From Trissonchulus latispiculum (lineage: Eukaryota > Nematoda > Enoplea > Enoplida > Ironidae), in contig JASAND010013532.1 in NCBI GenBank assembly GCA_030248195.1, positions 45,424-109,423 of the forward strand: a stretch of DNA of 64,000 nt, written 5' to 3'. The stretch's first letter is position 1, and each line of letters opens with the position of its first letter. Shown here in pieces: positions 22,456 through 47,158 of this stretch. A program made the position numbers and the translations under genes. The notes under the pieces were generated by a model, which saw only the letters and a program-made list of their open reading frames with translations, had not been told where the DNA came from and made no database searches.

Positions 22456-23025
22456 TGTGAACTATTTTCTGATATTCTCTTTGACTTTCACTTAAAATTA
22501 CCTAAAATGCAGTGCTACCTTTATGAACGATAAATGCAAAATTGTACTCTTATGTAGGAACCTCGGTTCCTTAGCTAAAATTGGTCCACCATTGAAATTG
22601 GGCGCAAATTCATTCTCACAGTTTCTTCTCTACTGGAAGGTTGGGTGTCCGCCATTGCTCTCTCTCTCTCTCTGTGTGTACTCCTTGGGGGAAGTGTTGT
22701 TGGTCTTGGGGCCCCCAATTTGGATAGATATTTGTCATTTTGGGTTTGTTAGTTTATGTTTTGGTACTATTACTTTGTATCACTTCCTCTTTTTTGAAAA
22801 AGTACTTGGTTTCAACTTGTTGTGTACATTTTGAGGTTTTGTATCGTTTTCGTAAATTTTACGAAAGTAAACTCACGGTACTTATTAGATTGCCGGCGCC
22901 TGCTGTAGTCGTTTAGGGAGTAAGCGAGTTTAGGGATGAGATTTGACATGCGCACACTCACGAATCTAGCAACTCTTCTTTTAATTTAAATTTATCGTTT
23001 ATTGGCAAACAACAAATTCTTTACA
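22456..23025 (+). repeat. 5' LTR
   Basis: A 570-bp LTR. The first roughly 160 bp (TGTGAACTATTTTC...) and the last roughly 160 bp (AGTAAACTCACGG... to TTCTTTACA) match the 3' LTR closely. The central roughly 250 bp (about 22616-22864, with a (TC)n tract) does not. Confidence 0.85.
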
Positions 23026-23027
23026 AC

Positions 23028-23037
23028 TGGCGACCGT
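23028..23037 (+). other. Primer binding site, tRNA-Arg type
   Basis: TGGCGACCGT begins two bases after the LTR. It complements the CCA-terminated 3' end of tRNA-Arg(UCG), the primer type of Drosophila 412/mdg1 elements. Complementarity stops after ten bases. Confidence 0.7.
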
Positions 23038-23054
23038 TCTTTCAGGAGAGTAGC

Positions 23055-25723
23055 ATGTCGGACTCGTCTCGCCCGCTTACTCGCTATTTGAAAAGACTTC
23101 GTGAAGAAACCGTTCGTCTTTTTTCGGAATTACCTCCAAATTCGCAGGCGCCAGAAGTTTCGGATAGTTTTTTGAACCGCCACTTTTTTCAAAAGTCTCC
23201 TGCAAATTTGGGGGGGCGACAGCATGGGAGGAAGGGGGGGATTGCCTCCCCCCAAAATTTACAAAATCCGACCCCTCCATACAGTTCAAATCCACCTCCC
23301 CCCCACCCCCACAAGTGGTGGTTTCTTCTCCACCTGGATCACAAAATTTAGGGGTACATTTTTCTGAACCTCCCCACCCCTAAATTTCTGAACCCCCCCA
23401 CCCCCAAATTTCTGAACCCCCACACCTACAAAATTCTGAACCTCCCCACCCCCAAATTTCTGAACCCCCCCCCACCCCCAAAATGCTGAACCCCCACACC
23501 TACAAAATTCTGAATCTTCCCACCCCCAAAATTTTGAACCTCCCCACCTCCAAAATTTTGAACCCCCCCATCCCCCAATTTTTCGTGGTGCTGTTCGACC
23601 CCCGACCCCTCCCCGGAATAGGCGCAGCCATTCCGCTTCTAGGGGACGGTCGTTAGGAGAAATGTCTCGGGGGGATATAAACTTTTCGGGGGCTTTAATG
23701 AATACGTGGGGTTCTCCAGCAGTTGGGGAACCAGTGGGACAAAATTTTGGGGGAGAATCATGTAGGGACCGGAGAGAAACCTCAGTGCAGGTGTTGAGGG
23801 GACCAATTTCCGGCCCATCCCAGATTGTGTCTCAGTTCGCTTCCCCTCTAAACGAAAATTTGGGTAATCTAGGGGCGGGTAAATTACCCACCCCCGCCCC
23901 CAAAAATCCAGTGGACCAAAATTCCGAAAATTCAAATTTTCGTCGGGATTTTGATAATTTTATTTCGCCTCGTTTTGACGTTGTTCAGAGTACCCAAAGT
24001 GTTCTTTCTGCTATGGGGTTGCAAAGCGGGGCGGCCCCTAATGGTGTATCTGGGCCGTTGTCCGGGCAAGCCAGAGAGGGACCCCCCTTCCCCAACAATC
24101 TCAAAATTTACTTCTACCCTCAAATACTTTGGGAAATGGGGCGGCCCCTAATGGTGCGTCTGGGCTGTTGTCCGGGCAAGCCGGAGAGGGACCCTCCCTT
24201 TCCCAACAAATTCAAAATTCACCCTTTCCTCCAAATTATTACCTCCCCCAAACTTCCCAAGGTGGGGCTGCAGCTCCTCCTCCCCAACGTACGTATTCTC
24301 TCCGGTCTCCTCAGGGTCCGCCCGGTGTTGACGGGACACTCTCCCGGCAGGTCGGAAACGGCTCCTGCCCCCCTCCATGGATTTAAATTTTTCACAAAAT
24401 TTTGGGCAAAATGTTTCGGGTCCGTCTGGCGTTGTCGGGACACTCTCCCGGCGGGTCGAAAACGGGATCCCTCCACCCCCTACTGGACCAAATTTTCAGC
24501 AAAATTTCGGGGAAAACGTTGCTCATTCAGAAAACGGGTCCGTCTATAATTCTGCGAACAGTCAAAATTCGGGTATTTTGTCTGAAGGGGGAGGTTCAAA
24601 CCATAACACCCCCGCATCATATATGGAGCAGAATTTTGGTGGGGGGTACCACCCCCCAGAGCCCAATTACCTACCCAATACCCAAATTCCATATAGCATT
24701 CCAGCGGCCTCGGTGGCAGATTTTCAGAAAAATACGTACGTACCGCCGGTAAATTCTCAAGCCCCTCAGTTGCCTCATTTGGGCGGGCATGTCATTCCCC
24801 GTGACAATACGGAAATCCCCTACCAAATCGAGCTACGGCTACTTCTCACATTTCGGTACATTGCACTCCAGTTTGCACCGGGAGTCCCTCCGCACCAAAA
24901 TTACATCATACACGGCCTCCCCCCCCCTTTACCAGTTCCCCACCCCAGTACTCAAAATCCCCCTCTGGCTTCTCCGAGTCGCTTAACTCAGCGTAGTTGC
25001 GTAAATGATCAGGACCCCAAATATTTTCCGATTCTCCCCCGTTCTTATGGACAACATTTGTATGAAGGTGCTCAACTTGCAGCCCCTGACCCGCATCAGC
25101 AGCAAATTCCTCAACTTTGTTATCAACCCCCCAATGAACAGTTTCCAGAGGGGCAATACTTTATACGTACACCCGCAAATTTTGAACATGACCGGTTGGA
25201 ACAGCAGGTTTTTCAGAATCCGGTCATTGCGGAACTAGACAGGAACCATTTGTGGGAGGGGTCCCAACCCAATCTTCCACCCCTCCGGGTACCGCCATAT
25301 TTACCTCAACAGGCTCCTGAAAATCCATATTACATGGCAGATATGGTTGCCTCCCATGCTTGTGCGACTGACTATGTATCTCAAAACCGCCCCTTTACCC
25401 CTAGCGAGACCTCCCAGCAGCGGGGACTACACTCGTCTGTGTCCTCCTTATGGGAAGGCAAGGACGCGGTGCCCCCCCTGCCGGACAGGAACCTCCGGGG
25501 GGCAACCCCCCCCCCCCAGAATTCGGCACCTACCACTCTTCCGCCAGTTTCTAGTTCACAACAGGTATGTACGTACATACCGCCACCTCTCCAACCATCA
25601 CTCTCTCCCCCTCCCCCGGGGCCTCCTCCTACCCCCTCATCTTTTTCGAATCAAAGTTCTCATACGGTGCATACCGTGGGGAAAGTCAAAAACGCCCAAA
25701 AATTCGCGTCACCCTACCCCTGA
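23055..25723 (+). CDS. Leader region: Pro-rich gag extension or separate upstream ORF (frame-disrupted)
   Basis: ATG at 23055 (MSDSSRPLTRYLKRLREETV) starts 18 nt after the primer binding site. The region stays open in shifting frames to TGA 25721-25723: 23055-23351, then 23662-24549, then 24377-25723. Composition is extreme in Pro, Gly, Asn and Gln. A peptide motif of the form VSGPLSGQAREGPPF is repeated (about 24040, 24150, 24320, 24430) and recurs in the pre-RT linker at about 29060-29150. The last frame ends four bases before the gag ATG at 25728 (TGAAACCATG), so it may be a separate ORF or an extension of gag interrupted by frameshifts. Function unknown; a disordered structural or RNA-binding region is plausible. 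Confidence 0.45.
23346..23580 (+). repeat. C-rich tandem repeat in the leader region
   Basis: About nine units of 24-29 bp built on CTGAACCCCCCCACCCCCAA plus ATTT. It interrupts the reading frame of the leader region. Length variation of C runs makes it prone to slippage. Confidence 0.75.
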
Positions 25724-25727
25724 AACC

Positions 25728-28187
25728 ATGCAACCAACGGACATTTCTGTCCCCAAATTTGATACTAGTCTTTTTCGGTATTATCTCGAAGTTTTAAGGG
25801 AGGTCCCTCGTTACGACCCAAAATAGGCTTATTTTGAGGATTGGCTTCCCCAATTCGAATCGGCCGTGGCGGTTCATGCGGTCACGGAGAGCCAGTGGGG
25901 GCGCCTTCTCTGGAACAAACTCTCCGGAAAAGCTCAAATTTTCGCCTCCCGTTGTGGCCCACAGGTCGTAGAGTCATATACCGGTTTTCTTGAATTGATA
26001 AAATCTCAATTTCCGAAACCTCAACTTTCTTTACGTGACAGATTTTCTGCTTTTGCTCATCGAAAACAGCTTCACAATGAATCTGTTCGTCACTATATAT
26101 CAGAATTGCAAGCTATGGCCCTTGACCTGTGGGACACCCAGGAGGAAAGGGAAGAACAGTGTGTTCAACAACTCTTCGCCGGAGTCCATGACAAATTCGC
26201 GCTTGCACTGGCCTCCCTCTACCAGAGTGAACGCCCGACCATGCAGGATGTGCGTCGCATCATTGACCGTCTGGAGTCTCGTAAAGCCAGGGCTCCGGAG
26301 GGCGACACCTTATCATATGATTTGCCTATTTACTATGTCGAAGAAGGCGGTTCTGATAATAGACCTCGGAACCAAAAAACTTCAGATTCAACCTCTTAGG
26401 CAAATCTGGAAGTAGCTGCCTCCCGCCTTGGTTTCCGAGAGATGAAGGACTGGTTTGAGCAACACATCCAAGAAGCTTTAGCTAAGTGGGAGGAAGAAAA
26501 ACGTAAGAAATTTTCCGCCCCTTGTAGATATTGTAAAAAGCGGGGTCACCCTCCCGAAAAATGTTGGGAAAGATATCCCTCCAAAGCCCCTCCTGACTAC
26601 AAACCTCGCCCCCTCCCGGAACGAATTGACCACGTTTCTTACAACCAGTCGCGTTATTCTCCTCAATATCAGGCACCAGCGAACCAACAACAGGCACCCC
26701 AAGCCTCGGTTCAAAATTTTCACCCCACTCCTGCTCAAACTCAAAATGTTTCTCCAACTCCGTATCAGCGTATTGTCATGGCAAATGCTGGTATTCCAGA
26801 GTTGTCACAAAATTTTGTACCTGCGTCGGATTCGGAAGAGGGAGCTCAAGCTGCCCCTCCCTCGGGCGGGTCAGCTCCCCCTTCCACCGGAGTCACCTTA
26901 CAGCAGGCAAATCAGATGTTTAGGCAATTTCAAGTTTCTATGGTGTCGGCCCGGCCAGGTGGCGGTCCTGCTCCGTGGGGGGAGGGGCCCCTCCAGTCTA
27001 GTCCAGAGGCACTTTCGATTTCCACTGAGCTTGATTCTCGACATCTTGATCTGTCAATGTCAGAAGCCCAATTGTCTAGTGTTTTCTCAAAAGTAGTTCA
27101 TAATTTGACTCATCTACAGGCAATTCATCGAGATACGTATAATTTTATGCAAGAATATCACCATGCTTTGTCTAATCAAATGCGTGAAATGGCTCTTTTA
27201 TTGAAACGTTTATGTCTTAACCAATTGGAATACGATTCGACCATGTTCGTCGAAAAACACCCACCTCCTACCTGGGCTGCGGGTTTTTCTCCGGTTCTCG
27301 GGGGGATGCCCCCTCCCCAGTCAGTACAGGCACAGAGTGTCTCAGTGGCCACGGAGACGGAACAGCCTACCGTTATTGACACCTTACAGGATAAGGAAAG
27401 CCCTGTTTCAGGTCATCTAGCTTCCGTAGCCGTGACTCCGGGGGCCTCCGCCGGAATTGAATCCGAACAGGTATTAGCGGCAGCGGACAATATGCCCGCT
27501 ATTTTAGTAACATCTGGGGCCGCAAGAATTTTGGCAATTATAGATTCCGGGGCCTCGATTTCTATCATTAGTCCCCGAACAGTACAAAGAATCTTGGCCA
27601 GTGGGGCGGAGGTTCGTTTTGACCACCATGATCCCATTACTGCCGTCACTTCAAACAATGCTCCCCTAAAAATTTCGGCCAAAGTTTTTGTTATTTTTAC
27701 AGTGGGGTGCAAAGAATATGGTTGGTCTTTTCATATGGCACCCGAATTCTATCGAGATATGTTAATTGGCACCGATTTTATGAAAATGTTTCAGTGGGAT
27801 TTATTGTTTTCTTCCAATGAGGTTAACATGCAAGGCATACGCCATCCCCTACTTTCAGCGGTTTATATTCGTTCCGAATTTTTAGCAAATTGGTGTGACG
27901 AAACTCCGGCAGTGATGGCAGTAGACGTGGTGGTACCTCCCACCTCGGAGGTTTGGGCTCAAGCTCGGACCTCCTCTGCTGTTCGGGGCCCATTGTGCTT
28001 TTTCGACCCTATGGAATCTTTATTGTCCGAACATAAAGTCCTGCCCTATGGTTCAAATTTTGGAAAACTTTTTCGAACTTTTAATGGTAAACCCAACCCC
28101 ATCTCCGATCACAATTCCACGGGCGACAGTACTCAGGTCGGTTACTCCCGTGCGGGATTATTCCACCCGGGAACCTGTTTTGTGTGA
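25728..28187 (+). pseudogene. gag (capsid, zinc knuckle) and protease, two in-frame TAG codons
   Basis: One frame runs from ATG 25728 to TGA 28187, interrupted only by TAG at 25824-25826 and 26397-26399. Between them lies a Retrotrans_gag-type capsid domain (WNKLSGKAQIF..., FSAFAHRKQLHNESVRHYIS). After the second TAG comes a CCHC knuckle, CRYCKKRGHPPEKC (CX2CX4HX4C), at about 26523. Then follow a long Pro/Gln linker and a retropepsin-like aspartic protease with active site IIDSGASISII at about 27538 and MLIGTDFM at about 27760. The protease C-terminus (NPTPSPITIPRATVL) is in the +1 frame from about 28048, so a frameshift lies between 28050 and 28180. Both stops have the form TAG-GC; each is one C-to-T change from CAG. 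Suppression cannot be excluded, but decay is simpler. Confidence 0.8.
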
Positions 28188-28254
28188 CCTCAATATTTTC
28201 ACTCCAGCTCAAGTCCATTTGGATGAATTTGCACGCGATTTGCATTTTGCGGTT

Positions 28255-28985
28255 GACGGACGTATGGGGGACCCTCCACTCCGGGAAGGTTCTCCATTCG
28301 ACCCATATCTACAGCAAAAGGCTCAAGACGATCAACAAATTGTGTTTCAGTGCCATGAAGAAAATATGGACTGGAGGGGTAAGCCACCCCTAGAAGAGGA
28401 AAATTCGGAACTAGAAATTGTGAAAGAAAATACCACCCTAGCAAAGGCATTGTCCACTCCCCCAGAACCTCAAAAAATTTCAAAAGAGGGGGTAGCCTCC
28501 CCCTCATCAAGCCAGACAATTGTTTTAAAACCTTCTTTAATTCCTCCAGAACAAGCAGCACCTTTACCTGAAAATTTGAAAAGACCTTTTCCGTTAGTTT
28601 CAGTTAGCTTTTCGCCGTTGATGCACGTATGGGGGACCCTCCACTCCGGGAAGGTTCTCCATTCGATCCGTATCTACGGCAAAAGGCTCAAGACGACCAG
28701 CAAATTGTGTTTCAATGTCATGAAGAAAACATGGATTCAAATATTTTTTCAAAAGAGGGGGTAGGCCACCCCCTAGAAGAAGAGAATTTGGAATTAGAAG
28801 TTGTCAAAGAAAATACCACCCTAGCAAAGGCTTTGTCGACTCCCCCAGAACCTCAAAAAATTTCAAAAGAGGGGGTAGCCTCCCCCTCATCAGGTCAGAC
28901 AGCTGTTTTGAAACCTTCTTTAATTCCTTCCGAACAATTAGCACCTTTACCTGAAAATTTGAAAAGACCTTTTCCGTTAGTTTCA
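28255..28985 (+). repeat. Tandem duplication in the pre-RT linker
   Basis: About 28255-28613 and 28620-28985 are direct copies offset by 365 bp (landmark ATGGGGGACCCTCCACTCCG at 28264 and 28629). Because 365 is not a multiple of three, the frame changes between copies. Each copy encodes MGDPPLREGSPFDPYL and an acidic Pro-rich tract. Confidence 0.9.
28478..28877 (+). repeat. Three internal copies of the polypurine tract
   Basis: Exact 17-base copies of the 3' polypurine tract at 28478-28494, 28747-28763 and 28861-28877. At 28478 and 28861 it is read as SKEGVA in the linker. Confidence 0.9.
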
Positions 28986-30227
28986 GTGGGGTTTTCTGAC
29001 CAGCTCCAGTACTGGGTTGAAGATTCCCCAAAATCGCAGGAGGACGTTTCTTCCGGGGGAGGTTGTCTGGGCCGTTGTCCGGGCGGCTCTCCTGGGGAAC
29101 CCCCTGGTGTGTCTGGGCTGTTGTCCGGGCAAGCCAGTGGGGAGTCCACCGTTCCTGCGTTTTCGGAGAATTTGGCGGAGGAAGAGGAGTGTGAAGCTTT
29201 TGAACCTGGGCCCCGGGTCCCGGTGAAATTTACAAGACAAATACATCCGGGCGATCCCGGATATACGTATTTTACACGCCAGCAATTACTTGAAATGTCA
29301 ACTCAGGAAAATTCTTCTTCTGGGGAGGCAGCCTCTCCGGAAAAGGGGGGCGCCTCCAATAATTTAACTGAAATTGTAAATTCTCCTGCTTTTGCGGAAG
29401 CAGAAAAAATCAAACTTGCCGATTGTTGCCTGACGCGGAGGAAGCAACGCAGGCTGAAACTTATGATTTTGAATTTTCCAAATATCTGGGACGCAGCCGG
29501 AGGCTGTGGAAAAACCGAAATCGATTATCACTATATTGAAATTGAACCCGGAAAACGTCCTATCAAAGCACGGTCGTATAATGTGAACCCTGCACAAAGG
29601 CAAATTATAGACGAGAAACTCGCGGCATGGTTGGAACAGGGACTCATACAGCCTTCCCGGAGCCCTTGGGCTTCTCCCATCATTCTGGTCGCCAAAAAGG
29701 ACGGGGACTGGAGATTATGTGTTGATTATCGGAAATTGAACGCAATCCCGAAAAAGGATTGCTACCCCATCCCCTACATTCACGGACTTTTCGAGGCAAT
29801 TTTGGGCCATTCTATTTTTTCTAAATTAGATCTGGCCTCCGGTTTCCACCAAATCCCTATTTACCCTCCGGACCGAGAAAAAACGGCCTTTATCACCCAT
29901 TCCGGGCTGTATGAGTTCAAGGTTATGCCGTTCGGTTTGTGCAATGCTCCGTCAACTTTTCAGCGCATTATAGATCGCATCATGGAAGGGTTCACGGTTT
30001 ATATTGATGACATTTTGATATCTAGTGCTTCTGAATTTGATCATTTAGATAAACTTCTTGAAATTTTCTTGCGTTGTTCAAGAGAGCGCGTCATTTTGAA
30101 ATTGTCAAAATGTGAATTTGCAAAATCTTCTATGCCCTTTTTGGTCATGTTTTGTCCGCCTCCGGGATCTCCACGGATCCGGAGAAAACTCGCGTTGTCA
30201 AGAATTTTTCTGTCCCACAAACTGTGA
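28629..30227 (+). pseudogene. pol: linker and reverse transcriptase
   Basis: A 532-residue frame. Its C-terminal half is a Ty3/gypsy RT with YRKLNAIPKKDCYPIP, FSKLDLASGFHQIPIYP, FKVMPFGLCNAPSTFQR and catalytic VYIDDILI. The N-terminal half contains the second copy of the linker duplication and a GLLSGQASGE peptide shared with the leader region. The frame breaks at about 30140 at a TTTTTGG run, where one base appears to be missing before the RNase H connection, and ends spuriously at 30227. The protein would make cDNA from the element RNA. The break makes this copy inactive unless it is an assembly error. Confidence 0.88.
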
Positions 30228-31975
30228 AAGATGTCCAAAGTTTTCTGGGTTTAGCGGGGTATTACAGGCGGTTCGTTCCAAACTTTTCCAAAATTGCTCA
30301 CCCCCTAAACTCTTTACTTAAAAAGGATGCAGAATTTGTCTGGTCTAGTGCCTGTCAAGCGGCATTTGAAACCCTAAAGGAAAAGTTGATCACGGCTCCT
30401 GTATTGGTGTATCCGGACTTTTCAAAGCGGTTCACCTTGGCCACGGATGCCAGCTTTTTAGGTATTGCAGCCGTCCTACAGCAAACTGATGACCAAGGTA
30501 AATTCCATCAGGTTGCATATGCCGCCCGGGCGCTGACCACAGCAGAAAAGAATTATCACGTAACTGAATTGGAAGCCCTGGCTATTTTCTTCGGGATCTC
30601 GTATTTTCAACATTATTTGATTTTATATGAATTTGACGTTATAACTGATCACAAAGCACTTGAATATATGTTGGGCGACCAAGTGGTACCAAAAACTGCC
30701 CTTGGTCGAATAGCCCGGTGGAGGGCCTTTCTACGCTCTTTTCGGTTTCGGGTAATTCAGCGCCCGGGTGTCACGAATGGTGCTCCGGATGCACTGTCTC
30801 GAAATCCTCCTGAGATACCTGGTTCTTTTGCGGACCACCCTAAAATTCCAGAATTTCTTTTCGCAATTACGAACATGGAGGACGAATATGAGGGCCCTGA
30901 GTACCCGCTGGCATCCGAGGCCGGAGTCGAAATTTGGAAACAAGCTCTGCAGTCGGACACCTTTACAGCCAATATGTTGAAATTTTTACAGGATAAAACC
31001 CTTCCACAAGATCCTGTGGAGGCATATGCTGTACGTAAAACTTCCTCGGACTATTATATTGAAAATGAAATTTTACACCGGAGGCTTAAGTTCAAACGCC
31101 GTGATCCCCTAAAATTGATAGTAGTCCCCCGGGATTGTCGCAAATATGTATTTGATGAATGTCACAATACACTGTTTGGTGGATGTCACAATGGGAGGGA
31201 CCGTACATTGGGAATGATCTCCGGAAAATATTTTTGGGAAACTTTAACTCAGGATGTAAACCGGTATTTGGATTTATGTCAAGTTTGTGCTGCATGTAAT
31301 CCCGGACCTCGCAAAAAGCAGGCCTGGATGCGTTTCTTCACTCCCGTAGAAGCCCCTTTTGAGAGGCTCTCCATGGATGTCATGCACGCCCCACCCACTT
31401 CCTCTGGAAATTCCAAGGTATTGGTTGTGGTCGATTTTCTGACGCGTTGGGGTTGGGCTTTTCCTATGCCAAATGAACAAACTCAAACGATTGCTAAAAC
31501 TTTTGCTGAAAATATTATCGCGGTTCACGGAGCTCCTAGAGAAATTCTAACGGACAAGGGTACTCCTTTTTGTTCTGCTTTAATGGAATCTTTGTGCAAA
31601 CTTTTGGGGACTAAAAAGGTACGTACTACCGCTTACCACCCTCAAACCAATGGGGCGTGCGAAAGACTGAATGGAACCTTAAAGAGACTTCTACGGAAAG
31701 CAATTTTAGGATTTAATAAGGAATGGGATGAGGTAATTCCGTGGGTTTTGTTTGCCTACCGCTCTACTCCCCATGCCTCTACCGGAGAATCCCCTTATTA
31801 TTTACTTTTTGGTCAAGATCCCCGGTTATTTTCTCAAAATTTACTCAGTCGCAAGGACCCACTTGTTAAAGAATTTACCCCTTCTTACGTAGAAGATTTA
31901 CGTGAAAAATTGCAGTATTCTCGTCAAATTCTCAAAGAATATACCTGGGAAGTTTTAAGAAAAACGTCGAGCTAG
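30152..31975 (+). pseudogene. pol: RNase H and integrase core
   Basis: Continues RT in a different frame. The connection segment is FLGLAGYYRRFVPNFSKIAH. RNase H shows LATDASFLGIAAVLQ, a TELEAL glutamate and the TDHKAL aspartate. An HHCC integrase zinc-binding region (CHNTLFGG..., DLCQVCAAC) and the DD35E core follow (LSMDVMHAPP, ILTDKGTPFC, HPQTNGACERLNG). All catalytic acidic residues are visible. The frame is lost at about 31950, and the ORF ends in TAG at 31975. Confidence 0.9.
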
Positions 31976-32210: not shown

Positions 32211-32604
32211 CTTATTCCATCTTTTGCCCGGTTAATTTTCCCTCTCCTTGAATTTTATTTTTCTAAATTCTTAGAAGTTCGTTTATTTCAAACGAATCAA
32301 ATCCTTTATAAATCTATTCCCTCTGATTTCGCAAAAAGCTAGTGTCAATCTCAGTACTATTGCTTAACGTTTTATCTACTTTACTTAATATTTTCTTTTA
32401 TTTTTATACCTTTCGTATTTCCCTTTTACCCTCCTTATTTGTATTTTACTAATCTATTGTGTATGTTATGTAATTGTCTAGTTATTTCAGTACACGCTTG
32501 TTTTGCTTCTGTTGCCCTCTAGTCAGTGCCTTTGGCCGACTTCTGGAGAACGCTTTGGTAGGTTTTCAATAAACTTTTCTAATTCTTTTCTTATTTTTAG
32601 TACT
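32211..32604 (+). other. pol - block A spacer with splice-acceptor-like end
   Basis: T-rich non-coding spacer. It contains TTACTAATC (about 32445) and ends in TTTTCTTATTTTTAG at 32600, a strong pyrimidine tract plus AG, four bases before the ATG of block A. Confidence 0.5.
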
Positions 32605-33419: not shown

Positions 33420-33965
33420 ATGTCAACTTCTCGGAGAGTATGTTTTGACCCACGTCCGTGTAGATACGACTTCTCAAATGCTGGTCAACCAATGTATGTG
33501 TCACTCTGGGGCAAGGTTGCTCCGGGAGAACATCTTCCTCCGGTATCGGTTCCTCTGTATCAGGAATTGGAATTAGGTCCAGCGGTACCTTACCGTGGGG
33601 GGTGGGTCACCCCTGCAGATTTGCGCTATAAACATATTGCGGCTATGATTTTTGATCCTTTGGAATTAGACTTGCCTTCCTGTAAGAAATTTATTGAATT
33701 AGCCGCTCAATTCGGATATTTCGTGTTCCCGGCTTATTTTCAGCCTCCCTTGTATTTACGTGAAAAAGGTGCTCCTACTTTGTATATGTCATGTCCTTCG
33801 GCTCCTCTATTGGTAAAAAATGAACACGAAGTTATTTTACAGAGAGTATCTCCTTTAGTTTTGCTCCAAAAATTTACGGATGCTATGTCGTCTCCAACTT
33901 CTCCTGCCTCACCACCTCCTGGGCCTTTACTATATAACCCTACTCCGGAGGAAGATTCTGGTTAG
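33420..33965 (+). CDS. Extra block B, unknown protein (intact, 181 aa)
   Basis: ATG 33420 (MSTSRRVCFDPRPCRYDF) to TAG 33965, uninterrupted. It follows a TATTTTAG acceptor-like signal (33404). It contains a compact middle region (YKHIAAMIFDPLELDLPSCK, FIELAAQFGYFVFPAYFQPP) and a Ser/Pro C-terminal tail. No signal peptide, zinc motif or membrane helix. I do not recognise the family. An open frame of this length in an otherwise broken element suggests past selection. A structural or accessory role in the particle or RNA is possible but unproven. Confidence 0.6.
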   Translation: MSTSRRVCFDPRPCRYDFSNAGQPMYVSLWGKVAPGEHLPPVSVPLYQELELGPAVPYRGGWVTPADLRYKHIAAMIFDPLELDLPSCKKFIELAAQFGYFVFPAYFQPPLYLREKGAPTLYMSCPSAPLLVKNEHEVILQRVSPLVLLQKFTDAMSSPTSPASPPPGPLLYNPTPEEDSG

Positions 33966-34135
33966 GTAGTAGGATGTTTTGTGTTTTGCACGTCTTGTTA
34001 TGTGTTGTTTTTGTCATATTTATTACATATTTTTATTCTAGAAAGGTTACGTGTGTCCGGAAATTCTCCTTCAAGCGGATCAAAAGGTTGTTCGGTGGGT
34101 TATATATTTTTGTATTTTTAAGGTGTTTATGTACA

Positions 34136-35185
34136 ATGTCTGATCGTTTGGTGTATTCACAACAGTTGGTAGCTGCTCGTCGAAATATGGTAGGGTATAC
34201 TCCTCCGCGTCCGGGGTTCCCTCCGATGAGATTTCCCATTCGTTCAGAGTTGCTTTCACCAAATTCAAGTTTTCCTAGATTTGTGTCAAACGTTGAATTT
34301 CCTAATTACTCCGGATACCCAGTCACGTCAGAATACCAGTCTATGCATCATTCGGAACCCGAATTGGGAGTTTATTCAATATTTGATCCTCCGTTCGGCA
34401 CTACCGGGCATGGGTCGGCCCCCTCTTTTTCAGTGACGCCTCCTCCCTCGTATGGGTCCTTGCAAAGTTTACCCACAACGACGACTCAAAATTTGTCAAA
34501 TTCTACTTCTGTTACTGTGACACGACCTCCTACTTCCACTTGGACATATGCTCCTTCCTCTGGATCCGCCTCTCCTCCCAGAACGCCAAATTATTACTAT
34601 GATTCAATTCCACCATGCTCTCCTCTCCAAATTCTACCTGGGACACTTTTTCCATAGATGGGCATGTGCAACCTCGTTATCCTACCGGGGCTGGGAGGTC
34701 CCCTACGCGTTATTCTTTACCATCAAATTTTCATCCCTTTTTACTTTCAAGAGAAGTTCAAACTTACGTTCCCTCGGTTTCGGTTCCCCTCGCCCCTCCT
34801 CCGCTCGCTTCCCGGGCCGGTGCACCCTCAGCTCCTAACACTATTCGTTTCCCTGCACTGATACCACCGGGAGGCTCCGTAAATGCTTGCACTGTTACTT
34901 TGTTTCAATTACCGTGGGGCCACCGGTTGGTTGCAAATTCTCCGCGTTATGCTCGTCCTGGTATTTGTTCTCAGTGTGGGCAACCGGCAGCACGTTCGTA
35001 TCAAAGAGGGGATATTTTCATGTCATCGCCCCCCTGGTCTTCTCGATGAAACTTTTACCGGGTCACCGTATTCGAACCCATCAGAAAATTCTCGTATTTT
35101 GGCCGAGGCCATAGTTTCGGATGTTTCGTTTTGGCGTTGGGACCCTGTTGATAGATGCCTTCGTCCTCAAAATCCTATCCCTTAA
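34136..35185 (+). pseudogene. Extra block C, CxxCGQ-tail protein (two frameshifts)
   Basis: ATG 34136 (MSDRLVYSQQLVAARRNMVG) after an ATTCTAG acceptor-like signal at 34041. The first frame runs to 34657. The coherent sequence moves to the next frame at about 34615 (WDTFSIDGHVQPRYPTGAGR) and again at about 35035. It ends at TAA 35185 with VSFWRWDPVDRCLRPQN. The centre is Ser/Thr/Pro-rich. The last roughly 110 residues (GICSQCGQPAARSYQRGDIF to the W-W-C-L-R-P tail) are homologous to block D. About 345 residues in total. The single CxxC plus a later Cys could bind zinc. Confidence 0.55.
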
Positions 35186-35472
35186 AAGGTTAAGATAATT
35201 TTGGTTTTGTAGTTTTGTTATGTGTAGTACGTACGTATTGTTTTCTTAGGTTGTGTTTTTATACTAATTAATTTGTATCATTTGTTTATTTCGCATGATC
35301 AGGGGTTTATTTTAAAAATTTATTTGAAAGAAAAAATTTAACATGTTCTCTAAGATTCCATGAAATTCTATTGAATCTATGTTTTGTTTAGATAATCCAT
35401 ATTGCCTTCCAGTGTTCCTCCGGTGTGCCCATCAGTGCCGTCCGTCTGTACGTTTTCAAGGAATCATTTCAA
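35186..35472 (+). other. Block C - block D spacer
   Basis: T-rich spacer with GTACGTACG, TACTAATTAA (about 35262) and acceptor-like CCTTCCAG at 35412. No coding content. Confidence 0.45.
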
Positions 35473-36209
35473 ATGTCAGATCAATCACCATCCGTTTCTC
35501 GAGCCATCGAGGTGGTCTCGGACCACGACTCCTCCATTGAAGTTGTAAATCAGAATTCGCAGCCTGCACTTCCCGTAGAAAAAATTTTGTTCCGGTGGTT
35601 ACCACAATTTCGGCGTCCTCTTCTTTGCCAAATTTGCCAATCTTGAAGAGGGCACCACATATGCGCCCTACTATTTCGCAGGAACATTCTTACCCTATCC
35701 CAATTCGCCCTAGACAACCGGTTGGGGACTTCACCCCCCCAGGACTTTTCATGCAAAATTTTTCTCCGCCTTTTGCTCCGCGGGTGGTTCGTCCGGGTGC
35801 GCCTCCTCAAGGGACCCCGGTCCATATTGTGGTCAGGTACCCATTGCCTGTCGGGCGCGTACACCCTTACTTGGTGTCTCGTCCCGTTATGCCACGACCG
35901 CCGCCCACACGGCCACCTCCCGGAGTTCCAAATATAATTGCGTTGCATCAAACCCCCCCGGGGTACGTTTCCGGACCCATTTCTCCGGAATTTGCCAGAA
36001 TAGATAATTGCCCAACGTGTGGTCAACGGGCTCCGCGTGTCTTTCACCGTGGAGAATTCACCATGATGTATCATGGTTCAGGAGTCACTACCAACACAAG
36101 ATTTGGAGTACCGGGAAATCCGCGCCCACTTCATCCAGCCTTCGGGGAAGAAACTTCTTATTGGTGGTGGGATTCTCTCCACCAGTGCTTGCGCCCTCGG
36201 TCCTGGTGA
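35473..36209 (+). pseudogene. Extra block D, CxxCGQ-tail protein (one frameshift)
   Basis: ATG 35473 (MSDQSPSVSRAIEVVSDHDS) with a frameshift at about 35590, then open to TGA 36207-36209. About 244 residues. The middle is Pro/Arg-rich (PIPIRPRQPVGDFTPPG). The C-terminal domain CPTCGQRAPRVFHRGEFTMM ... SYWWWDSLHQCLRPRSW aligns with that of block C in the order CxxCGQ, RGxF, W-W-D, CLRP. The name is unknown. The pair looks like a tandem gene duplication with fast-evolving N-termini. Confidence 0.6.
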
Positions 36210-36539: not shown

Positions 36540-39341
36540 ATGCAGCGGGAATCAGATCAGTCGGAGGAGCCTAGTGCTCCCGGAGGTGACGCTCAGCAAA
36601 CGGCTCAGGAGGAGGACGATCAGCCCTCCACAGTAGAAATTTACCTCGAAACCGAACCAGATGGGGCTAAGCCGTCAGCCTCGACTTCTCCGGGGTGCTC
36701 TACGTGGGGCCGTGCTGCCAGTGATGCTACTCTCAATCTGGCGCAGGCGTTTACCCCTAACCTGTCGAAGACCCAGCGTCTGCGCCGTTGTGCGGGTAAT
36801 GGTTCTTCGTCTGGTTCAGTGGCGGATCCTGTCCTGCGTCGTGCAGCAGAGGCAGCAGCCAGGTCCTCTAATGAGCCCAAGACTAACACGAATCCTCCTC
36901 TCACGAGGGATGATCTGGAGGAAATTCTAAGGCATAGGACGATTCACCCTGTGACAATTCCGGCCTTCATTGAATCCCAGCAACTCCGAAATTGGGAGGA
37001 ATCTGTGCAGAAATGGGCAAGGGAGCCGAGTAGCCTAAAGCCTCGAGATTCTCGTGATACCATTACTATAGTTACCAGTCTCCAACAGCTCTACGCAAAA
37101 GTTCAGAAAATCTATGAAAAAGCAGATAGCGCTCGTTTTTTGACTCTTTCGTATGTGAAGCATCAAGGCTCTTTTCCAGATTCGTCCACTGGACCAGCTC
37201 TTTCCATCTTGTTGATTGCAGTCCCGGAACATCCGCTTAAATTTTCCACTGAAATTGATGCACTCTGTTTCTATGCTCCTCGTCATTGCACGCACGACAC
37301 AAATTTTAAGGTTTTTATGTTTCTGATTTCTCGAATCTATATGGATACTCCCTCCTGGTCTCTCATCAGATATGGCCTGCAGCCTATCTTGTACAACACG
37401 CCTTTTCCAATCTTCGCTGTAGGTGCCGTTGACACGGTTCGAATTTTGTACACGACCTTGGGCATTGATGCCAGAAATTCCATTGTTGATTTGAATCAGC
37501 TCGTTGACTATATCGCTGAACGCCCTTTACCTTCAGGTCTCCGTCAAAGGAATCCTTCTCACCGAAAAGGTCCACACATTTGGAACACCAAGGGTGATCC
37601 CTCAAAGGGCATTTCTTCTTTTCCGACGAAGCCACCGTCCCCCGGTACACGGATGGATCGGCCCTTCAAGTGGTTTCAGGAGACTCTTCTACAGTATCCT
37701 CCGGATAAGATTCGTCGTGTCTATCTCTCAGATAATTCTGTCACCCCTCTCCAGGAGGAACCTGTTCTCGAATATGGGCTGGTCCAGATTCGGGATATCT
37801 ACATGTCTGTTCATCTGTTGAACCTCTATTCTCCTCTTCTCGAACAGGACTTTCTAGTGTTCCGAAAAACCCGAGCTTATGGTCAAAAGGGGCAGCTTAA
37901 AACACTACGTGAATTGTCTAGTTTAGCTATTGACCCAAAACCTGTTCCGGTTACGGATCCTCCCTTTGATTCTACTCAGATGATTTTTCTCAAGTACGAG
38001 CCTAATAAGGGTAGAAGTAAAGGTGACAAAATCTCGGCACACCTTCGCCCGGACCTTACGGTCCCTACTGCACAGAACCCTCGGATTCATGGGGTTGAAG
38101 TCCGGGATAAGGAAATTTTTGTTTCTGCGCCCCTACGGGTAAATCCGTCTGTGGTAGGCTCTAAGGCGGAAAAAGTTCCGGGTGCTGCGAAGCGTGCCAA
38201 GGAGGCACTGCAGGAGGAGCAGGATTTCCGGGCGGTTGAGGAGCACGAGGACCCGGAGGAACTACCAGTAGATCATCAGCCAAGTCAGCTGAATTTGGCC
38301 AGCTTTCCGACTTCTCCTCCGGGAACTCCTCCTCATTCTCCACCTTTGTCCATGGACACGTCTGTTGGGCGTTTGTTAATTGACGAACGTCCGCGTGCTC
38401 GCTCTAGGTCACCTCCACGGTCGGGTGTGGGTGCGGTCGGTTCTGGGCGGTCTCCTCACTCCAGGAATCGCTCCGTTCCTACACGCTCCGGTCTCACCCT
38501 ACACATGGATGACCTACTGGGTATGTATGCAGACATGCCTAGAAAACCGACTCTCCCGGAGGCCGCTGAGGCTTCACGTAAATACGATCAGCAGGTGGCC
38601 GCCCGGACTGCTGCCTCGGCCGCTGCTTCTGTTGCTTCGGCTGCTGCCGCTGCGTCTGTTGCTTCGGCTCCTACTGCTGGTTCGCCGCTCCCGGAGCAGC
38701 CTGCTCCAAACTTGCTACCGCCGGCCTCTGTCTCTATTCCGGTCAAGACCACCAAACTTCGCAAAACTGTGGTTCAGACTTCTACAGGGGAGGTTTCTAT
38801 TGCGCAGCCTGTTCCATCGACTTCAGGCCTAAGTGCATCGAGCAGCCAACAATCGCTCACCCACTGTCCGCCACATGTTCCTGGACAGTCTGAGTCTTCT
38901 ACCTTGGATTTTAGTCTTATTCCGGGTGGTGGTTATTACGTTGACCGTGGCCCCGGTATTCCTGGGGTCACGACCTCTAGTTTGTTCCCGACATCCACTC
39001 CGCCCGTGACGATTTCTCTTCCGAGTTCCACTCCGGTTAGAGCGAAGCTTCCACCGCAGCAGGCTCCTGTTTCTCAAACTTCGGTGCGGATGGCTCCGGT
39101 GGTCCAGTCCCCACTACTTCCTGTGTCTACAGCTCAGGCTCCGGTTCTCCGGCTCCGACAGGAGGGGTTGACTCCCCCCTTCCGCCCGTTTCTACTCCTC
39201 TTCCACCCTTGCGTTTCTCTACTCCCCACCGCCCTCCTCCAATTGGCCTTTCTCCGGCTTTGGATATGTCTATTGCAGTTTCCGGGCTTGATGACACTCT
39301 TCGTCGCCTTGCTCAAGATTCGTTTTTCAGCTTTTACCTAA
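36540..39341 (+). CDS. Extra block E, N-terminal part: large unknown protein
   Basis: ATG 36540 starts MQRESDQSEEPSAPGGDAQQ, an acidic disordered head. Upstream codons in frame belong to the T-rich spacer, so I start here. The frame is uninterrupted to about 39150 (roughly 870 residues). After that the coherent sequence shifts frame, and the ORF closes at 39341. It contains a long, probably folded region at about residues 120-430 (FIESQQLRNWEESVQKWARE, RFLTLSYVKHQGSFP, RIYMDTPSWSLIRYGLQPIL). An Arg/Ser tract near residue 616 (RARSRSPPRSG) and an Ala/Ser run near residues 690-715 follow, then Ser/Thr/Pro-rich sequence. No signal peptide, membrane span or known enzyme motif. Confidence 0.65.
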   Translation: MQRESDQSEEPSAPGGDAQQTAQEEDDQPSTVEIYLETEPDGAKPSASTSPGCSTWGRAASDATLNLAQAFTPNLSKTQRLRRCAGNGSSSGSVADPVLRRAAEAAARSSNEPKTNTNPPLTRDDLEEILRHRTIHPVTIPAFIESQQLRNWEESVQKWAREPSSLKPRDSRDTITIVTSLQQLYAKVQKIYEKADSARFLTLSYVKHQGSFPDSSTGPALSILLIAVPEHPLKFSTEIDALCFYAPRHCTHDTNFKVFMFLISRIYMDTPSWSLIRYGLQPILYNTPFPIFAVGAVDTVRILYTTLGIDARNSIVDLNQLVDYIAERPLPSGLRQRNPSHRKGPHIWNTKGDPSKGISSFPTKPPSPGTRMDRPFKWFQETLLQYPPDKIRRVYLSDNSVTPLQEEPVLEYGLVQIRDIYMSVHLLNLYSPLLEQDFLVFRKTRAYGQKGQLKTLRELSSLAIDPKPVPVTDPPFDSTQMIFLKYEPNKGRSKGDKISAHLRPDLTVPTAQNPRIHGVEVRDKEIFVSAPLRVNPSVVGSKAEKVPGAAKRAKEALQEEQDFRAVEEHEDPEELPVDHQPSQLNLASFPTSPPGTPPHSPPLSMDTSVGRLLIDERPRARSRSPPRSGVGAVGSGRSPHSRNRSVPTRSGLTLHMDDLLGMYADMPRKPTLPEAAEASRKYDQQVAARTAASAAASVASAAAAASVASAPTAGSPLPEQPAPNLLPPASVSIPVKTTKLRKTVVQTSTGEVSIAQPVPSTSGLSASSSQQSLTHCPPHVPGQSESSTLDFSLIPGGGYYVDRGPGIPGVTTSSLFPTSTPPVTISLPSSTPVRAKLPPQQAPVSQTSVRMAPVVQSPLLPVSTAQAPVLRLRQEGLTPPFRPFLLLFHPCVSLLPTALLQLAFLRLWICLLQFPGLMTLFVALLKIRFSAFT

Positions 39342-39357
39342 TATTTGTACGCCGCAA

Positions 39358-40884
39358 TTGCTTTTTGCTTTAGAACAGTATGGGTTGTCTCAACTCCAAA
39401 TTTTTAACAAATTGGGAATTCCACCTCCCTGGAAACCTTTGGCTTTTATTCACGCTGTTTTGCAGATTGATGCCGCTCACATGCCAAATTTATTCAAAAT
39501 CTTTTATCCGGAACCCCCGGTTAACCCCTTACTGGATACGTCGGCCGGAGGCCTGTCCTCTTTGTTGAATTTGAATCTGTTTGGACTGTCTGGTGGGTCG
39601 GACGCTGCGGCTCCGGGTTCGGGCCCTCTGCGGTCTACCCCCGGTTCCGAGCTCCCGTCTGCTCCAGTAGTGCAAGTCGTGGGTGTCTTGGATCAACCTG
39701 GGCCATCCCACCGCCCAGATATTCCTGCGGTTTTGGATGTTCCTATGCAGGAGGAGCCGGTGGTTCAGCTGCATGTACCGCCTCCACAGCCTCCGCCTCT
39801 TCAGGTTTCTCCATATGCAGTTCCGCCGTTTGCAGGTATTCCGGTGGACAGACAAGTTGTTTGGCCTGAGTCTCATTTTTTGTTTCCACCTAAATTAGTC
39901 TTGGATTTGACAGGCTTGGTGGCGGGCTCTCTTTCATCTGAGGCAGTTCCTACAATTATAGTCGATCAGCGACCACAGTACATTGTTCAACCTTTGGCAG
40001 GTCCGTACAAGGCTACCAAAATTATTCGCGAACGTGGCTTGGCTAAAATTCCTCCGGGATTGGAAAAGTTCAATGAATGCCCTCCCAACTTTGCGGATTC
40101 GGATAAGCAGTTGCCGTGTGGCACCCAGCCTTACACGGGGCCTCAAAAGGTTGACGAAGCCTTTTGGCCAGGTGTTCATTATCTGATCCACCATTACCCG
40201 AATATGGTTCCCTTTCGGATTTACTCGGAACCTTACTGGCAGATAGCTCACCTCCCGGACCTCCAGTCCAAGATCGATGGGTCCTCCTTGAACCCATATT
40301 TTATTGCCATCTATAACTTCTGGGACGACGTTTTTCGTCGCAATGACATGCCTTTTGCGGTGACGGATAATGTCTACGACAACTTTTTGCAGTGCATCAA
40401 AAATCTCTTTCCAGGGGCTGAGGTGCATTGCACCCCTACGGAACACAAGTTCGTCACTTCAGATGGGTCTCCCTATCCAACTTTGGACCGCTATCGTTGG
40501 ACAGTTCACCTGGACTTTCCTCCGATCTACCGTCGGGGTGTGTTAGAATTTGACTCTTTCCGACTGGTAGGGCAGGCTGGCAATCTGTGGGCCGCCACTG
40601 CGTCTGCTGCGGCTAAAATCTTTCCGTTCATCAATATCTATCCTACGTATCTCACGGCTCGCGGTCCGCCTTCTAAATATGTCAAATTTATCTCCAAGAT
40701 CACTAAAGACCTTGCTACTCTGGCGGAGGACACGGTCAACAAAGTTTGGGCCCACTCGCATAATCAGGCTCATAAAGCTGCGATGAATCGCCAGGTCATC
40801 TGGTTCAAAGGCCCTACTGCTATTGCTTCCAACATGTGGATCGTTCAACCTGATCCTCTTTCAAATTCACAGGATCTGGTCTAG
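39358..40884 (+). CDS. Extra block E, C-terminal part: unknown 508-aa frame
   Basis: The frame is open before its first start-like codon and reads continuously from about 39310 (NICTPQLLFALEQYGLSQLQ), so it is more likely the continuation of block E after two single-base frameshifts than a separate gene. A Pro/Val-rich linker (PPPQPPPLQVSPYAVPPFAG) is followed by a well-ordered C-terminal domain of about 330 residues (VDEAFWPGVHYLIHHYPNMV, YRWTVHLDFPPIYRRGVLEF, KDLATLAEDTVNKVWAHSHN) ending at TAG 40882-40884. No family recognised. Joined, block E would be about 1,440 residues, the largest product of the element. Confidence 0.65.
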   Translation: MLFALEQYGLSQLQIFNKLGIPPPWKPLAFIHAVLQIDAAHMPNLFKIFYPEPPVNPLLDTSAGGLSSLLNLNLFGLSGGSDAAAPGSGPLRSTPGSELPSAPVVQVVGVLDQPGPSHRPDIPAVLDVPMQEEPVVQLHVPPPQPPPLQVSPYAVPPFAGIPVDRQVVWPESHFLFPPKLVLDLTGLVAGSLSSEAVPTIIVDQRPQYIVQPLAGPYKATKIIRERGLAKIPPGLEKFNECPPNFADSDKQLPCGTQPYTGPQKVDEAFWPGVHYLIHHYPNMVPFRIYSEPYWQIAHLPDLQSKIDGSSLNPYFIAIYNFWDDVFRRNDMPFAVTDNVYDNFLQCIKNLFPGAEVHCTPTEHKFVTSDGSPYPTLDRYRWTVHLDFPPIYRRGVLEFDSFRLVGQAGNLWAATASAAAKIFPFINIYPTYLTARGPPSKYVKFISKITKDLATLAEDTVNKVWAHSHNQAHKAAMNRQVIWFKGPTAIASNMWIVQPDPLSNSQDLV

Positions 40885-42341
40885 GCTGAGGCTGAGCAAA
40901 ACCTCCGGGAGGCTGTTAGGTACCCTGCACCCGTGTAATTGTTTTCTGTGTATGTGGCGGGGTGGGATATTTGCATGGCCCGTATTAGGGGGGGTATTGT
41001 TGTTATGTATTAATTTTTGTTTCGGGGGATTTGTTCTCTGTTTCTTATATGTGGTCTAACATTTATTCTTCTGAAGCAAATTTGATTATTTCTTTTCGAA
41101 TACGATTTGCTTGCCTTTCATAGAAGTATTTTCTTATTTGAATTTTTATGTTCCCCACATTTCAATAAAAAGTGGAGTTCTTTTCAAAGCGACTTAAATT
41201 CGGCGAATTCTTACACATATTTTATTTTTATCTCGTATATGACTACTTACTCTATTTTATCAAAATTTTACCATTTAACTTTTTCATTTTAAATCTGCAA
41301 TAGTACTGGGGTTGTTCTACCGTCCCGTATCTCGGCGGGTCCGTGGTTGCTCGTCGCCTGTGTCTGGCTTATGGCCGGGCAAGGGTGGGCGGTCAACCAC
41401 GGACCGGCATCTTGGACTCCGTAGTTTATCTTTTCGCTTTCTTTGATTTTGGCGCAGTCTGCGGTCGCTGGTTGTCTGGATACTCTCCAGGCTGCAGTAG
41501 CCGTAGGCTCGCGCCCTCTCTTCCCTAAATTAATCGGGCCCTTATGCTGTACTGTATAGGCCTCTGTGCCGTATACTTGTGACTTGTGGCCTTTGTGCCT
41601 TATATTATGCTATGTTGTCTACTGTAGGCCCTTGTGCCGTATGTTATCCCTATATATTATGTCGTATTTACTCCCTTTTTGTTTGTCTTTGTTTACTGTA
41701 ACATTTTTCCCCTTCCCTCCCCCCCAGTCCCTATTTTGCGGCGAGTTCCCCTTTCTGATACTGTATATGCTGTGTAAAAATTTTATGTCCTTATGCTTAT
41801 GTTAGGACCCGGAGGATTCCGTGGTTGGTTCAGGGCCCGGAGGTACGGGTTGGCCCGGTAACTGGTGAGGGCCTGGTTAGTCTGTTGGCCGGTGATTGGT
41901 CTTGGGGCTGGAGCGGCTTGCGCCGTGGGGCGCCCGCTCCCCTTCCGGAGGTCGGTCCGTTGGTAGCTGTGGGGTCTACCCCCTACGGCGTGGTTCTTGG
42001 CGGCCTCCCTGGCCTGTTAACTCTGAACTTTTTATTATATCAGTCTGTATTTTGTGATTGTTGTGCATTCCGGTTCCCCCTACTCGTCCGCTCCCCCTCC
42101 TCCTTTCCCCTATTTTCTAATCGTGTTGTGTGTTTTCATTCCACTTTTCTGCTTTATTCTTGTCTAATAGCTTTAACCGGTTGGGGGGAAACTGATTCGG
42201 GTTTATATTTTATGGGGTTTCTTGCTTGATTATCACCTTCTAAAATTTTATTGACTCTTAAAAAACTTTCTACCTCTTTCTACAGTTCTTTCGAAATTTT
42301 TCTATTTGGGTGCCCCCTAGTTCGGCTAGTCCGTCCTATAT

Positions 42342-42626: not shown

Positions 42627-42660
42627 ATTTCCGTTGGAGTAGCCTCTCCCGGAGCACCTA

Positions 42661-42669
42661 CTATATATA

Positions 42670-42735
<66 letters not shown>
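42661..42735. repeat. (TA)n microsatellite
   Basis: About 70 bp of alternating TA in the 3' non-coding part of the retroelement. Confidence 0.95.
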
Positions 42736-42737
<2 letters not shown>

Positions 42738-43208
42738 TTCATATACAGCTGGGGTTTAACATTTTATTTCGTTGTTTAGTCATTTGTAGTATATTTTCTA
42801 CTGTAGTCGTTTAGTTCCTATAATGTCTAACTTTGAATTGTGCTATTGTAGTGTAGTATTTTCGAAAATAAGCTTCCCACCGTTCTGTTAAAATTTTTCG
42901 GGTTACTCTCCCTTTTGAGACCTGCACTCCCGCCGCGGCTGAAGGGTTCTATGTCTTCTGTGTTGAGTCAATGTACTCTATATATATATGTTGTGTGATT
43001 GTCCGGCACGTGCCGAAGTAGCTTTACCCGTGTCTCGAAAACAGACCCCTAACAATTTGGCAAAGCCAGGGGCTCGAGTGAGATACAATTTTAATTCTTT
43101 TCTGCTTTCTAAAACGACGTTTATCTTTACTAGTACCTAAGTTACCTAGGTTAACCCTCAATTTTTTTGGCTACTAATTTTGCCTGGAGGCCGCGGCGAG
43201 GGCGCGCG

Positions 43209-43225
43209 TTTCAAAAGAGGGGGTA
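43209..43225 (+). other. 3' polypurine tract
   Basis: TTTCAAAAGAGGGGGTA lies immediately upstream of the 3' LTR (first base 43229) and serves as the plus-strand primer site. The same 17-mer occurs three times inside pol. Confidence 0.85.
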
Positions 43226-43228
43226 ATC

Positions 43229-43773
43229 TGTGAAGTATTTTCAAATATTCTCTTTGATTTTCATCTAAATTTACTTAAAATGTAGCGCTATCTTTACGAA
43301 CGGTAAATCTAAATTGTACTATGTGTAGGAACCTCGGTTCCTTAGCTAAAATTGTTCCGCCATTAAAATTGAGCGCAAATTCATCTTCTCCATTTTTCCA
43401 CAGAATACGGTCGGGTTTTGGTAGTTGTCAGCCGACCATTCTTGGGGGATTTTCTGAGGGCCGACCCCTTTCTTCTTTATTTCGGTCTGCGTCTCGGGTT
43501 TGTCTTTTGTTTATTTTTTGTCAATGCTATTTGTAGTTCTGTAAAGTTTCATGTTTTTGAACTGAAAAGTTGATTTTGCTATTTTTGTAACTTTATAACT
43601 TTGTCTAAAAACCCAGTAAACTCACGGTATTTATTAGATTGCCGGCGCCTGCTGTAGTTGTTTAGGGAAGTAAGCAAGTTAGGGACGAGATTGACATGCG
43701 CACACTCACGAACCTAGTAATTCTTCTCTTTATTTAAATTTATCGTTCACTGGCAAACAAAAAATTCTTTACA
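43229..43773 (+). repeat. 3' LTR
   Basis: A 545-bp LTR, TGTGAAGTATTTTC... to ...ATTCTTTACA. Ends match the 5' LTR; the centre (about 43386-43611) is unrelated to the 5' copy. Confidence 0.85.

Positions 43774-47157: not shown

Positions 47158-47158
<1 letters not shown>

What the first reader, a model, noticed from the sequence alone, without database searches (positions are those of the whole stretch)
22456..43773. 21-kb Ty3/gypsy element carrying about 8 kb of unrecognised extra genes
The sequence shows LTRs, PBS, gag, PR, RT, RNase H, integrase and PPT in normal order, then 11 kb between integrase and the 3' LTR. That region holds five coding blocks (A-E) with ATG starts, coding-like composition and no resemblance to env, chromodomain, ORF1 or other known cargo. 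Typical Ty3/gypsy elements are 5-8 kb. Inference: a distinct giant retroelement lineage with its own accessory or structural proteins.
Basis: partly seen in the sequence, partly recalled or inferred. Interest (0 to 1): 0.92.

Follow-up and report, generated by a model that had tools for sequence, protein, structure and literature searches.

The report
Giant retrotransposon with conserved extra genes
This is a worn-out copy of a 21-22.6-kb jumping-gene family that carries, besides its normal copying machinery, a set of extra genes preserved by selection, the largest of which ends in an enzyme domain that in other organisms removes ADP-ribose tags.

Summary
Window 22456-43773 is an LTR element with gag, PR, RT, RNase H and integrase, then 11.3 kb before the 3' LTR. 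In the same 734-Mb genome block E has 95 scored matches; E follows integrase on the same strand in 34 of 35 contigs tallied. Another copy (C17411, 22.6 kb) has 98.9% identical LTRs and, by eye, a 4-bp target duplication. The blocks recur in divergent subfamilies (integrase about 84% and 79% identical) and are under purifying selection (E: 435 pairs, median dN/dS 0.095; out-of-frame control 1.88).

The window copy lost it by a 0.5-kb deletion. There is a further gene A0, related to A; the end of B is related to C. One locus of a fourth subfamily shows only D/E. The window copy is broken, lacks a TSD and has two unlike LTRs, so it is probably a recombinant relic.

New: the 3' polypurine tract recurs as an internal doublet. 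A counter-defence role for NADAR is inferred.

The parts
22456..23025 (+). 5' LTR (570 bp)
   Evidence: aligned with 3' LTR at both ends; matched by 43 other places or pieces in the genome
23028..23045 (+). primer binding site, TGGCGACCG...; resembles the 3' end of an animal tRNA-Arg (recalled, not tested)
   Evidence: read from sequence; same start in copy C17411
23662..25723 (+). proline-rich open frames before gag (295 and 448 aa, overlapping in different frames)
   Evidence: no Pfam match
25827..28187 (+). gag and protease; in-frame stop at 26397-26399
   Evidence: Retrotrans_gag 0.012 and gag-asp_proteas 0.0017, both below cut-off
28239..28996 (+). tandem duplication in the protease-RT linker (two copies, about 86-90% identical)
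   Evidence: mismatches by codon position 8/8/22
28478..28877 (+). three internal copies of the 17-nt 3' PPT at 28478, 28747 and 28861; the last two form a 114-bp doublet
   Evidence: doublet seen in nine other contigs
29691..31975 (+). RT, RNase H and integrase; RT frameshifted near 30.1-30.2 kb
   Evidence: Pfam; frames
32602..33191 (+). gene A0 (frame broken here)
   Evidence: intact 199-aa homologue in L039; dN/dS 0.07-0.12
33420..33965 (+). gene A, 181 aa, distant relative of A0
   Evidence: dN/dS 0.10-0.24
33974..35185 (+). gene B/B2 (one 336-aa ORF in L039; broken here); its end is related to C
   Evidence: dN/dS B 0.28-0.49, B2 0.07-0.32
35541..36209 (+). gene C, CxxCGQ-type motif
   Evidence: dN/dS 0.08-0.17
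36540..40884 (+). gene D/E, one ORF of 1,599-1,671 aa in several other copies; frames broken here at about 39.1-39.4 kb
   Evidence: dN/dS of E median 0.095, of a D part 0.26
40863..40886 (+). site of a deletion of about 0.5 kb that removed the NADAR domain of D/E
   Evidence: alignment with L036; residual last 16 residues follow
43209..43225 (+). 3' polypurine tract
   Evidence: same place in C17411
43229..43773 (+). 3' LTR (545 bp), middle unlike the 5' LTR

Best explanation
A decayed, probably recombinant copy of a multi-copy family of 21-22.6-kb Ty3/gypsy LTR retrotransposons. SHOWN: between integrase and the 3' LTR the family carries separate ATG genes: A0 and A (distant relatives), B/B2 and C (related ends), and a 1.6-1.7-kaa D/E gene whose C-terminus is a NADAR domain; these are kept by purifying selection and recur in divergent subfamilies. 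SHOWN: the PPT sequence recurs as an internal doublet upstream of RT in other contigs. INFERRED: D/E came first and A- and C-type genes were added and duplicated (or lost in subfamily 4); the element copies itself by ordinary LTR retrotransposition; the internal PPTs give extra plus-strand starts that help finish a very long cDNA (about 0.5 likely); the cassette is expressed from spliced or subgenomic RNA, in the place where env usually lies; the NADAR domain removes ADP-ribose from nucleic acid or protein, or destroys an ADP-ribose-derived signal, so countering host ADP-ribosylation defence (about 0.4 likely).
For: E: 95 scored matches. Integrase then E on the same strand in 34 of 35 contigs, gap 6-10 kb in 30 of 35. 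C17411: LTRs 555/561 identical, PBS, PPT, 4-bp duplication, 22.6 kb. Gene order in L039, L061, L041-L044. Selection: E 435 pairs median 0.095, range 0.056-0.182, out-of-frame control 1.88; NADAR part 0.076; integrase 0.018-0.045 for comparison. NADAR above Pfam cut-off in three of three subfamily-1 copies scanned; profile finds NADAR 8bau and YbiA 2b3w; signature motifs in 23 of 25 copies each. PPT pattern 958 exact matches in the genome, 0 for the reversed pattern.
Against: No expression data. The function of A0, A, B, C and most of D/E is unknown, and no fold was obtained. The subfamily-4 NADAR match is below cut-off and rests on one locus. NADAR continuation in subfamilies 2 and 3 was seen as open frame or first residues only, not scanned. 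The A0-A likeness is not significant within the window itself. Loci used for selection were the best-scoring ones, not a random sample. The catalytic activity is untested, and other NADARs act in riboflavin metabolism (PMC11543638, passages).
Confidence: 0.8

Rival explanations
1. NADAR and D/E act on the element's own RNA or cDNA (processing or repair) and not against host immunity.
For: The authors of PMC12477816 propose RNA processing for NADAR in Ectocarpus Gypsy elements (passages).
Against: No direct evidence either way; PMC9503650 argues that NADAR of animal RNA viruses mainly targets host ADP-ribosylation (passages).
Confidence: 0.3
2. D/E is a virion structural protein, a second capsid- or tegument-like component, with NADAR packaged as a passenger.
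For: D/E is large, lies in the env position, has no membrane-spanning stretch in the subfamily 2-4 sequences examined, and has conserved regions joined by proline-rich linkers.
Against: No likeness of D or E to the element's gag in profile comparison; no Pfam or PDB match; no structure.
Confidence: 0.2
3. The cassette is a set of captured host genes, or a one-off insertion or assembly artefact.
For: In the window: no TSD, two unlike LTRs, no database relatives of D or E.
Against: The same arrangement in 30 or more contigs and in divergent subfamilies, under selection. Recombination explains only this copy's LTRs.
Confidence: 0.03

Closest known systems
Ectocarpus Gypsy lineage with a YbiA-family NADAR domain (PMC12477816; passages read)
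   Same: Ty3/gypsy element carrying a NADAR domain.
   Different: [quoted passage not shown] here it ends a separate 1.6-kaa gene after integrase, beside four further genes, in an animal-type element.
Burro giant Gypsy elements of planarians (PMC6431247; passages read)
   Same: Giant Ty3/gypsy elements with much extra coding sequence.
   Different: Burro has a 4,873-aa ORF1 with BIR, ankyrin, MATH, BCL2-like and env-like parts before protease, and about 30 kb in all; here the extra genes lie after integrase and none of those domains was found.
Ogre and Retand elements of plants (PMC6431247 passages; PMC11963269 seen only as a search listing)
   Same: Long Ty3/gypsy elements; Retand has a long stretch from pol to the 3' LTR.
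   Different: Ogre's size comes largely from long LTRs and 1-2 extra ORFs; here the LTRs are about 0.56 kb and the cassette is about 8 kb.
NADAR proteins of viruses (PMC9503650; passages read)
   Same: Mobile elements using a NADAR domain, there proposed to undo host ADP-ribosylation.
   Different: In animal RNA viruses it sits in replicase polyproteins; the words retrotransposon and LTR do not occur in that paper.

Membership tests
Ty3/gypsy (Metaviridae) LTR retrotransposons | LTR pair with PBS and PPT | tested here: met
   intact pair in C17411
Ty3/gypsy (Metaviridae) LTR retrotransposons | order RT - RNase H - integrase | tested here: met
   Pfam
Ty3/gypsy (Metaviridae) LTR retrotransposons | short target-site duplication | tested here: met
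   ACAG in C17411, read by eye; not met in the window copy (TCAG/ATAG)
Ty3/gypsy (Metaviridae) LTR retrotransposons | RT-integrase clusters with known Ty3/gypsy sequences | tested here: met
   458 hits, best 38% identity over 96%; tree of 110 rows places it as a long branch among rows without chromodomain, no well-supported set smaller than half of the rows holds it
Errantivirus/env-bearing Ty3/gypsy | env gene with signal peptide and transmembrane stretch after integrase | tested here: not met
   no env match among the proteins scanned; no KD-19 value above 1.6 in D/E of subfamilies 2-4. B has one hydrophobic N-terminal stretch, not examined further
Burro elements | BIR, ankyrin, BCL2-like or MATH domains | tested here: not met
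   none in window ORFs scanned or relatives' cassette genes
Ogre | extra ORF upstream of gag and long LTRs | tested here: inconclusive
   proline-rich open frames before gag, not tested for selection; LTRs only about 0.56 kb
NADAR domain | Pfam PF08719 above curated cut-off | tested here: met
   53.3, 52.0 and 47.9 bits against 35.1 in L036, L024, L013; subfamily 4 31.3 bits, not met; absent from the window copy
NADAR domain | active-site Glu, Lys and second Glu/Asp-Trp signature | tested here: met
   SEQLYHW.K and LVEA...D.YW each in 23 of 25 copies; spacing fits E43/K50 and E125/D130/W133 of the P. nicotianae enzyme (by eye; PMC11543638 passages)
NADAR domain | ADP-ribosyl hydrolase activity | not testable with these tools
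   needs an enzyme assay

The most novel reading that the evidence does not exclude
A distinct lineage of giant, gene-accreting animal-type retroelements that went, within one genome, from a D/E-only form to a five- or six-gene form by gain and duplication, uses a NADAR enzyme as a counter-defence against ADP-ribosylation, and uses paired central polypurine tracts to complete a 22-kb cDNA: a retroelement with the genetic complexity of a complex virus.
Probability: 0.3. Interest if true: 0.88.

Novelty: new variant of a known kind. Interest (0 to 1): 0.74.

Why it matters
Ty3/gypsy elements are usually 5-10 kb. This family keeps about 8 kb of extra genes under purifying selection, so the genes most likely serve the element. 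It offers a testable case for how retroelements gain genes, for whether ADP-ribosylation defends animal genomes against retroelements, and for whether extra polypurine tracts make very long cDNAs possible.

Tried and rejected
Protein-database searches with the window's D (E <= 0.01) and E (E <= 0.1) gave nothing among 7,992 and 7,996 scored candidates; three scans of viral contigs gave no relatives. AlphaFold2 on part of window E without an alignment gave pLDDT 36 and was not used; no fold search was made. D and E profiles show no likeness to the element's gag. Host-gene capture of the whole cassette, chance ORFs and assembly artefact were rejected. In one search minus-strand loci were not turned round, so its numbers were dropped and redone. 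In one search the window's B was read in a wrong frame; redone. The short D1-95 stretch gave one high ratio (0.92, 11 differences). A locus chosen for subfamily 4 ended too early (L062) and was replaced by L063. Exact PPT matches in the fetched loci were only 2 of 65; most of these pieces do not reach the PPT positions.

A genome-wide search for NADAR domains (PF08719) was asked several times and never answered. No subfamily-4 E search was run. The host was not identified. In the held library, searches for NADAR with retrotransposon, transposable elements, or gypsy/DUF1768/YbiA listed one relevant paper, PMC12477816; most subscription papers are not held.
Full report
What is there. The element spans 22456-43773 with LTRs of 570 and 545 bp. 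Both LTR ends align (136/156 and 147/159 identical), but the middle 230-250 bp do not, and the flanks show no target duplication (TCAG before, ATAG after, by eye). Elsewhere some LTRs match the window's 5' LTR only at about positions 1-157 and 411-571, as the window's own 3' LTR does (C18190, C12649). I infer two LTR types and a copy made by recombination between two insertions. The gag frame has a stop and RT is frameshifted, D/E changes frame between about 39.1 and 39.4 kb, and about 0.5 kb is missing near 40.87 kb. It is a relic.

Is it a family? The genome (733.8 Mb, 21,732 contigs, unnamed) was searched piece by piece; only the best candidates are scored, so counts are lower bounds. Block E gave 95 matches (91 of 915 candidates scored). 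Integrase gave 99 matches (97 of 6,329 scored) in classes of about 90-97%, 81-85%, 76-80% and 62-70% identity. E of the second class gave 102 matches (98 of 898 scored) and uncovered a third class. In 34 of 35 contigs that hold both integrase and E in these lists, E lies downstream on the same strand, and in 30 of 35 the gap is 6-10 kb. The exception, C18518, has a subfamily-1 E and a subfamily-2 integrase on opposite strands, presumably two elements. Three LTR pairs with E between them span 22.6 (C17411), 22.5 (C8040) and 19.3 kb (C13428). C17411 has 555/561 identical LTR bases (K2P 0.011), PBS, PPT and, by eye, a 4-bp duplication ACAG, so this design moved more recently than the window copy.

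Genes. In subfamily 2 (L039) the order after integrase is A0 (199 aa), a second A0 (186), A (184), B/B2 (336), C (231), then D/E, each with an ATG; the D/E open frame is 1,599 aa. Subfamily 3 (L061) has A0, A, one B/C-type gene and D/E. The single subfamily-4 locus read (L063) has a D/E homologue (24-39% identity), broken in this copy, about 1 kb after integrase, and no hit to A, B or C. B2 and C are related within the window; A0 and A are related when subfamilies are compared (3.7e-4, 2.4e-6), but not significantly within the window. The simplest history is D/E first, then gain and duplication of A- and C-type genes; loss in subfamily 4 is not excluded.

Selection. E: 30 loci, 435 pairs, median dN 0.066, dS 0.710, ratio 0.095, range 0.056-0.182. 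Read one base out of frame the ratio is 1.88; mismatch by codon position is 0.088/0.060/0.318. NADAR part: 25 copies, 300 pairs, median 0.076, up to 0.36. A0 0.07-0.12, A 0.10-0.24, C 0.08-0.17, B2 0.07-0.32 (4-5 loci), B 0.28-0.49 (4 loci), a C-terminal part of D 0.26 (23 loci, 253 pairs). Integrase for comparison 0.018-0.045 (4 loci). The 30 loci are the best-scoring of 95 E matches, not a random sample.

What D/E is. The window's E ends where a domain begins that the deletion removed. In other copies the frame goes on for about 186 codons, and Pfam calls NADAR at 5e-14, 1.2e-13 and 2.4e-12 in three of three subfamily-1 copies scanned, and at 3e-7, below cut-off, in subfamily 4. A profile finds the solved NADAR 8bau and YbiA 2b3w at E 0.003-0.004. 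Of 30 loci, 28 keep at least 118 of 189 residues in one or two pieces; the window and L011 keep 16. In subfamily 3 the first residues of the domain are seen at the end of the fetched piece; in subfamily 2 only the open-frame length suggests it. The rest of D/E and the genes A0, A, B and C match nothing convincing in Pfam; E and D were also negative in the PDB by sequence. Gag likeness was tested and not found.

Internal polypurine tracts. The 17-nt 3' PPT occurs three more times in the window, all in the protease-RT linker (no shuffle of 100 reached four matches). Genome-wide it occurs 958 times exactly, against 0 for the reversed pattern. In the part of the list shown (contigs C18 to C2444) nine contigs have a doublet 114-116 bp apart (C143, C268, C336, C556, C1154, C1316, C1584, C1750, C2238); in the five that also appear (C143, C336, C556, C1154, C1316) it lies 1.9-2.0 kb before the integrase match, as in the window (28747 and 28861, 1.9 kb before). 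C336 and C1316 also have the PPT just before a 3' LTR. Many listed contigs show single matches. Central PPTs are known in lentiviruses and Ty1 (recalled); function here is inferred.

Novelty. NADAR in retrotransposons is in print: a Gypsy lineage of Ectocarpus, in Pol, and Tx1 LINEs of oyster (PMC12477816, passages). A separate NADAR-bearing gene after integrase, the A/C gene set and paired internal PPTs did not turn up in the papers listed by my searches (listings and a few passages only, none aimed at PPTs). Hence a new variant of a known kind.

Noticed in passing
23321-23612: Array of about 24-26-bp C-rich repeats (CTGAACCCCCCCACCCCCAAATTT) in the leader before gag.
   Followed up: no
24019-24234 and 29105-29155: A short repeated motif of the pre-gag frames recurs between protease and RT.
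   Followed up: partly
50204-50908 and 55818-56789, minus strand: Two related BTB/POZ-domain ORFs (Pfam 4.5e-7 and 4.2e-9), probably host genes or their relics; they recall arthropod TDPOZ-type proteins (recalled, not tested).
   Followed up: partly
45371-45967: A separate reverse transcriptase fragment (RVT_1 5.5e-11) just downstream of the element.
   Followed up: no
41164-41169: AATAAA shortly after the end of D/E.
   Followed up: no
9437-10184; 47154-48353 and 60713-63679: A tandem array with unit near 72 bp, and a dispersed repeat of about 1.1 kb in three copies, one inverted.
   Followed up: no
G000:C16405 and G000:C18190: LTR pairs 4.8 and 10.9 kb long in all with no E hit listed: possibly short or deleted derivatives.
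   Followed up: no
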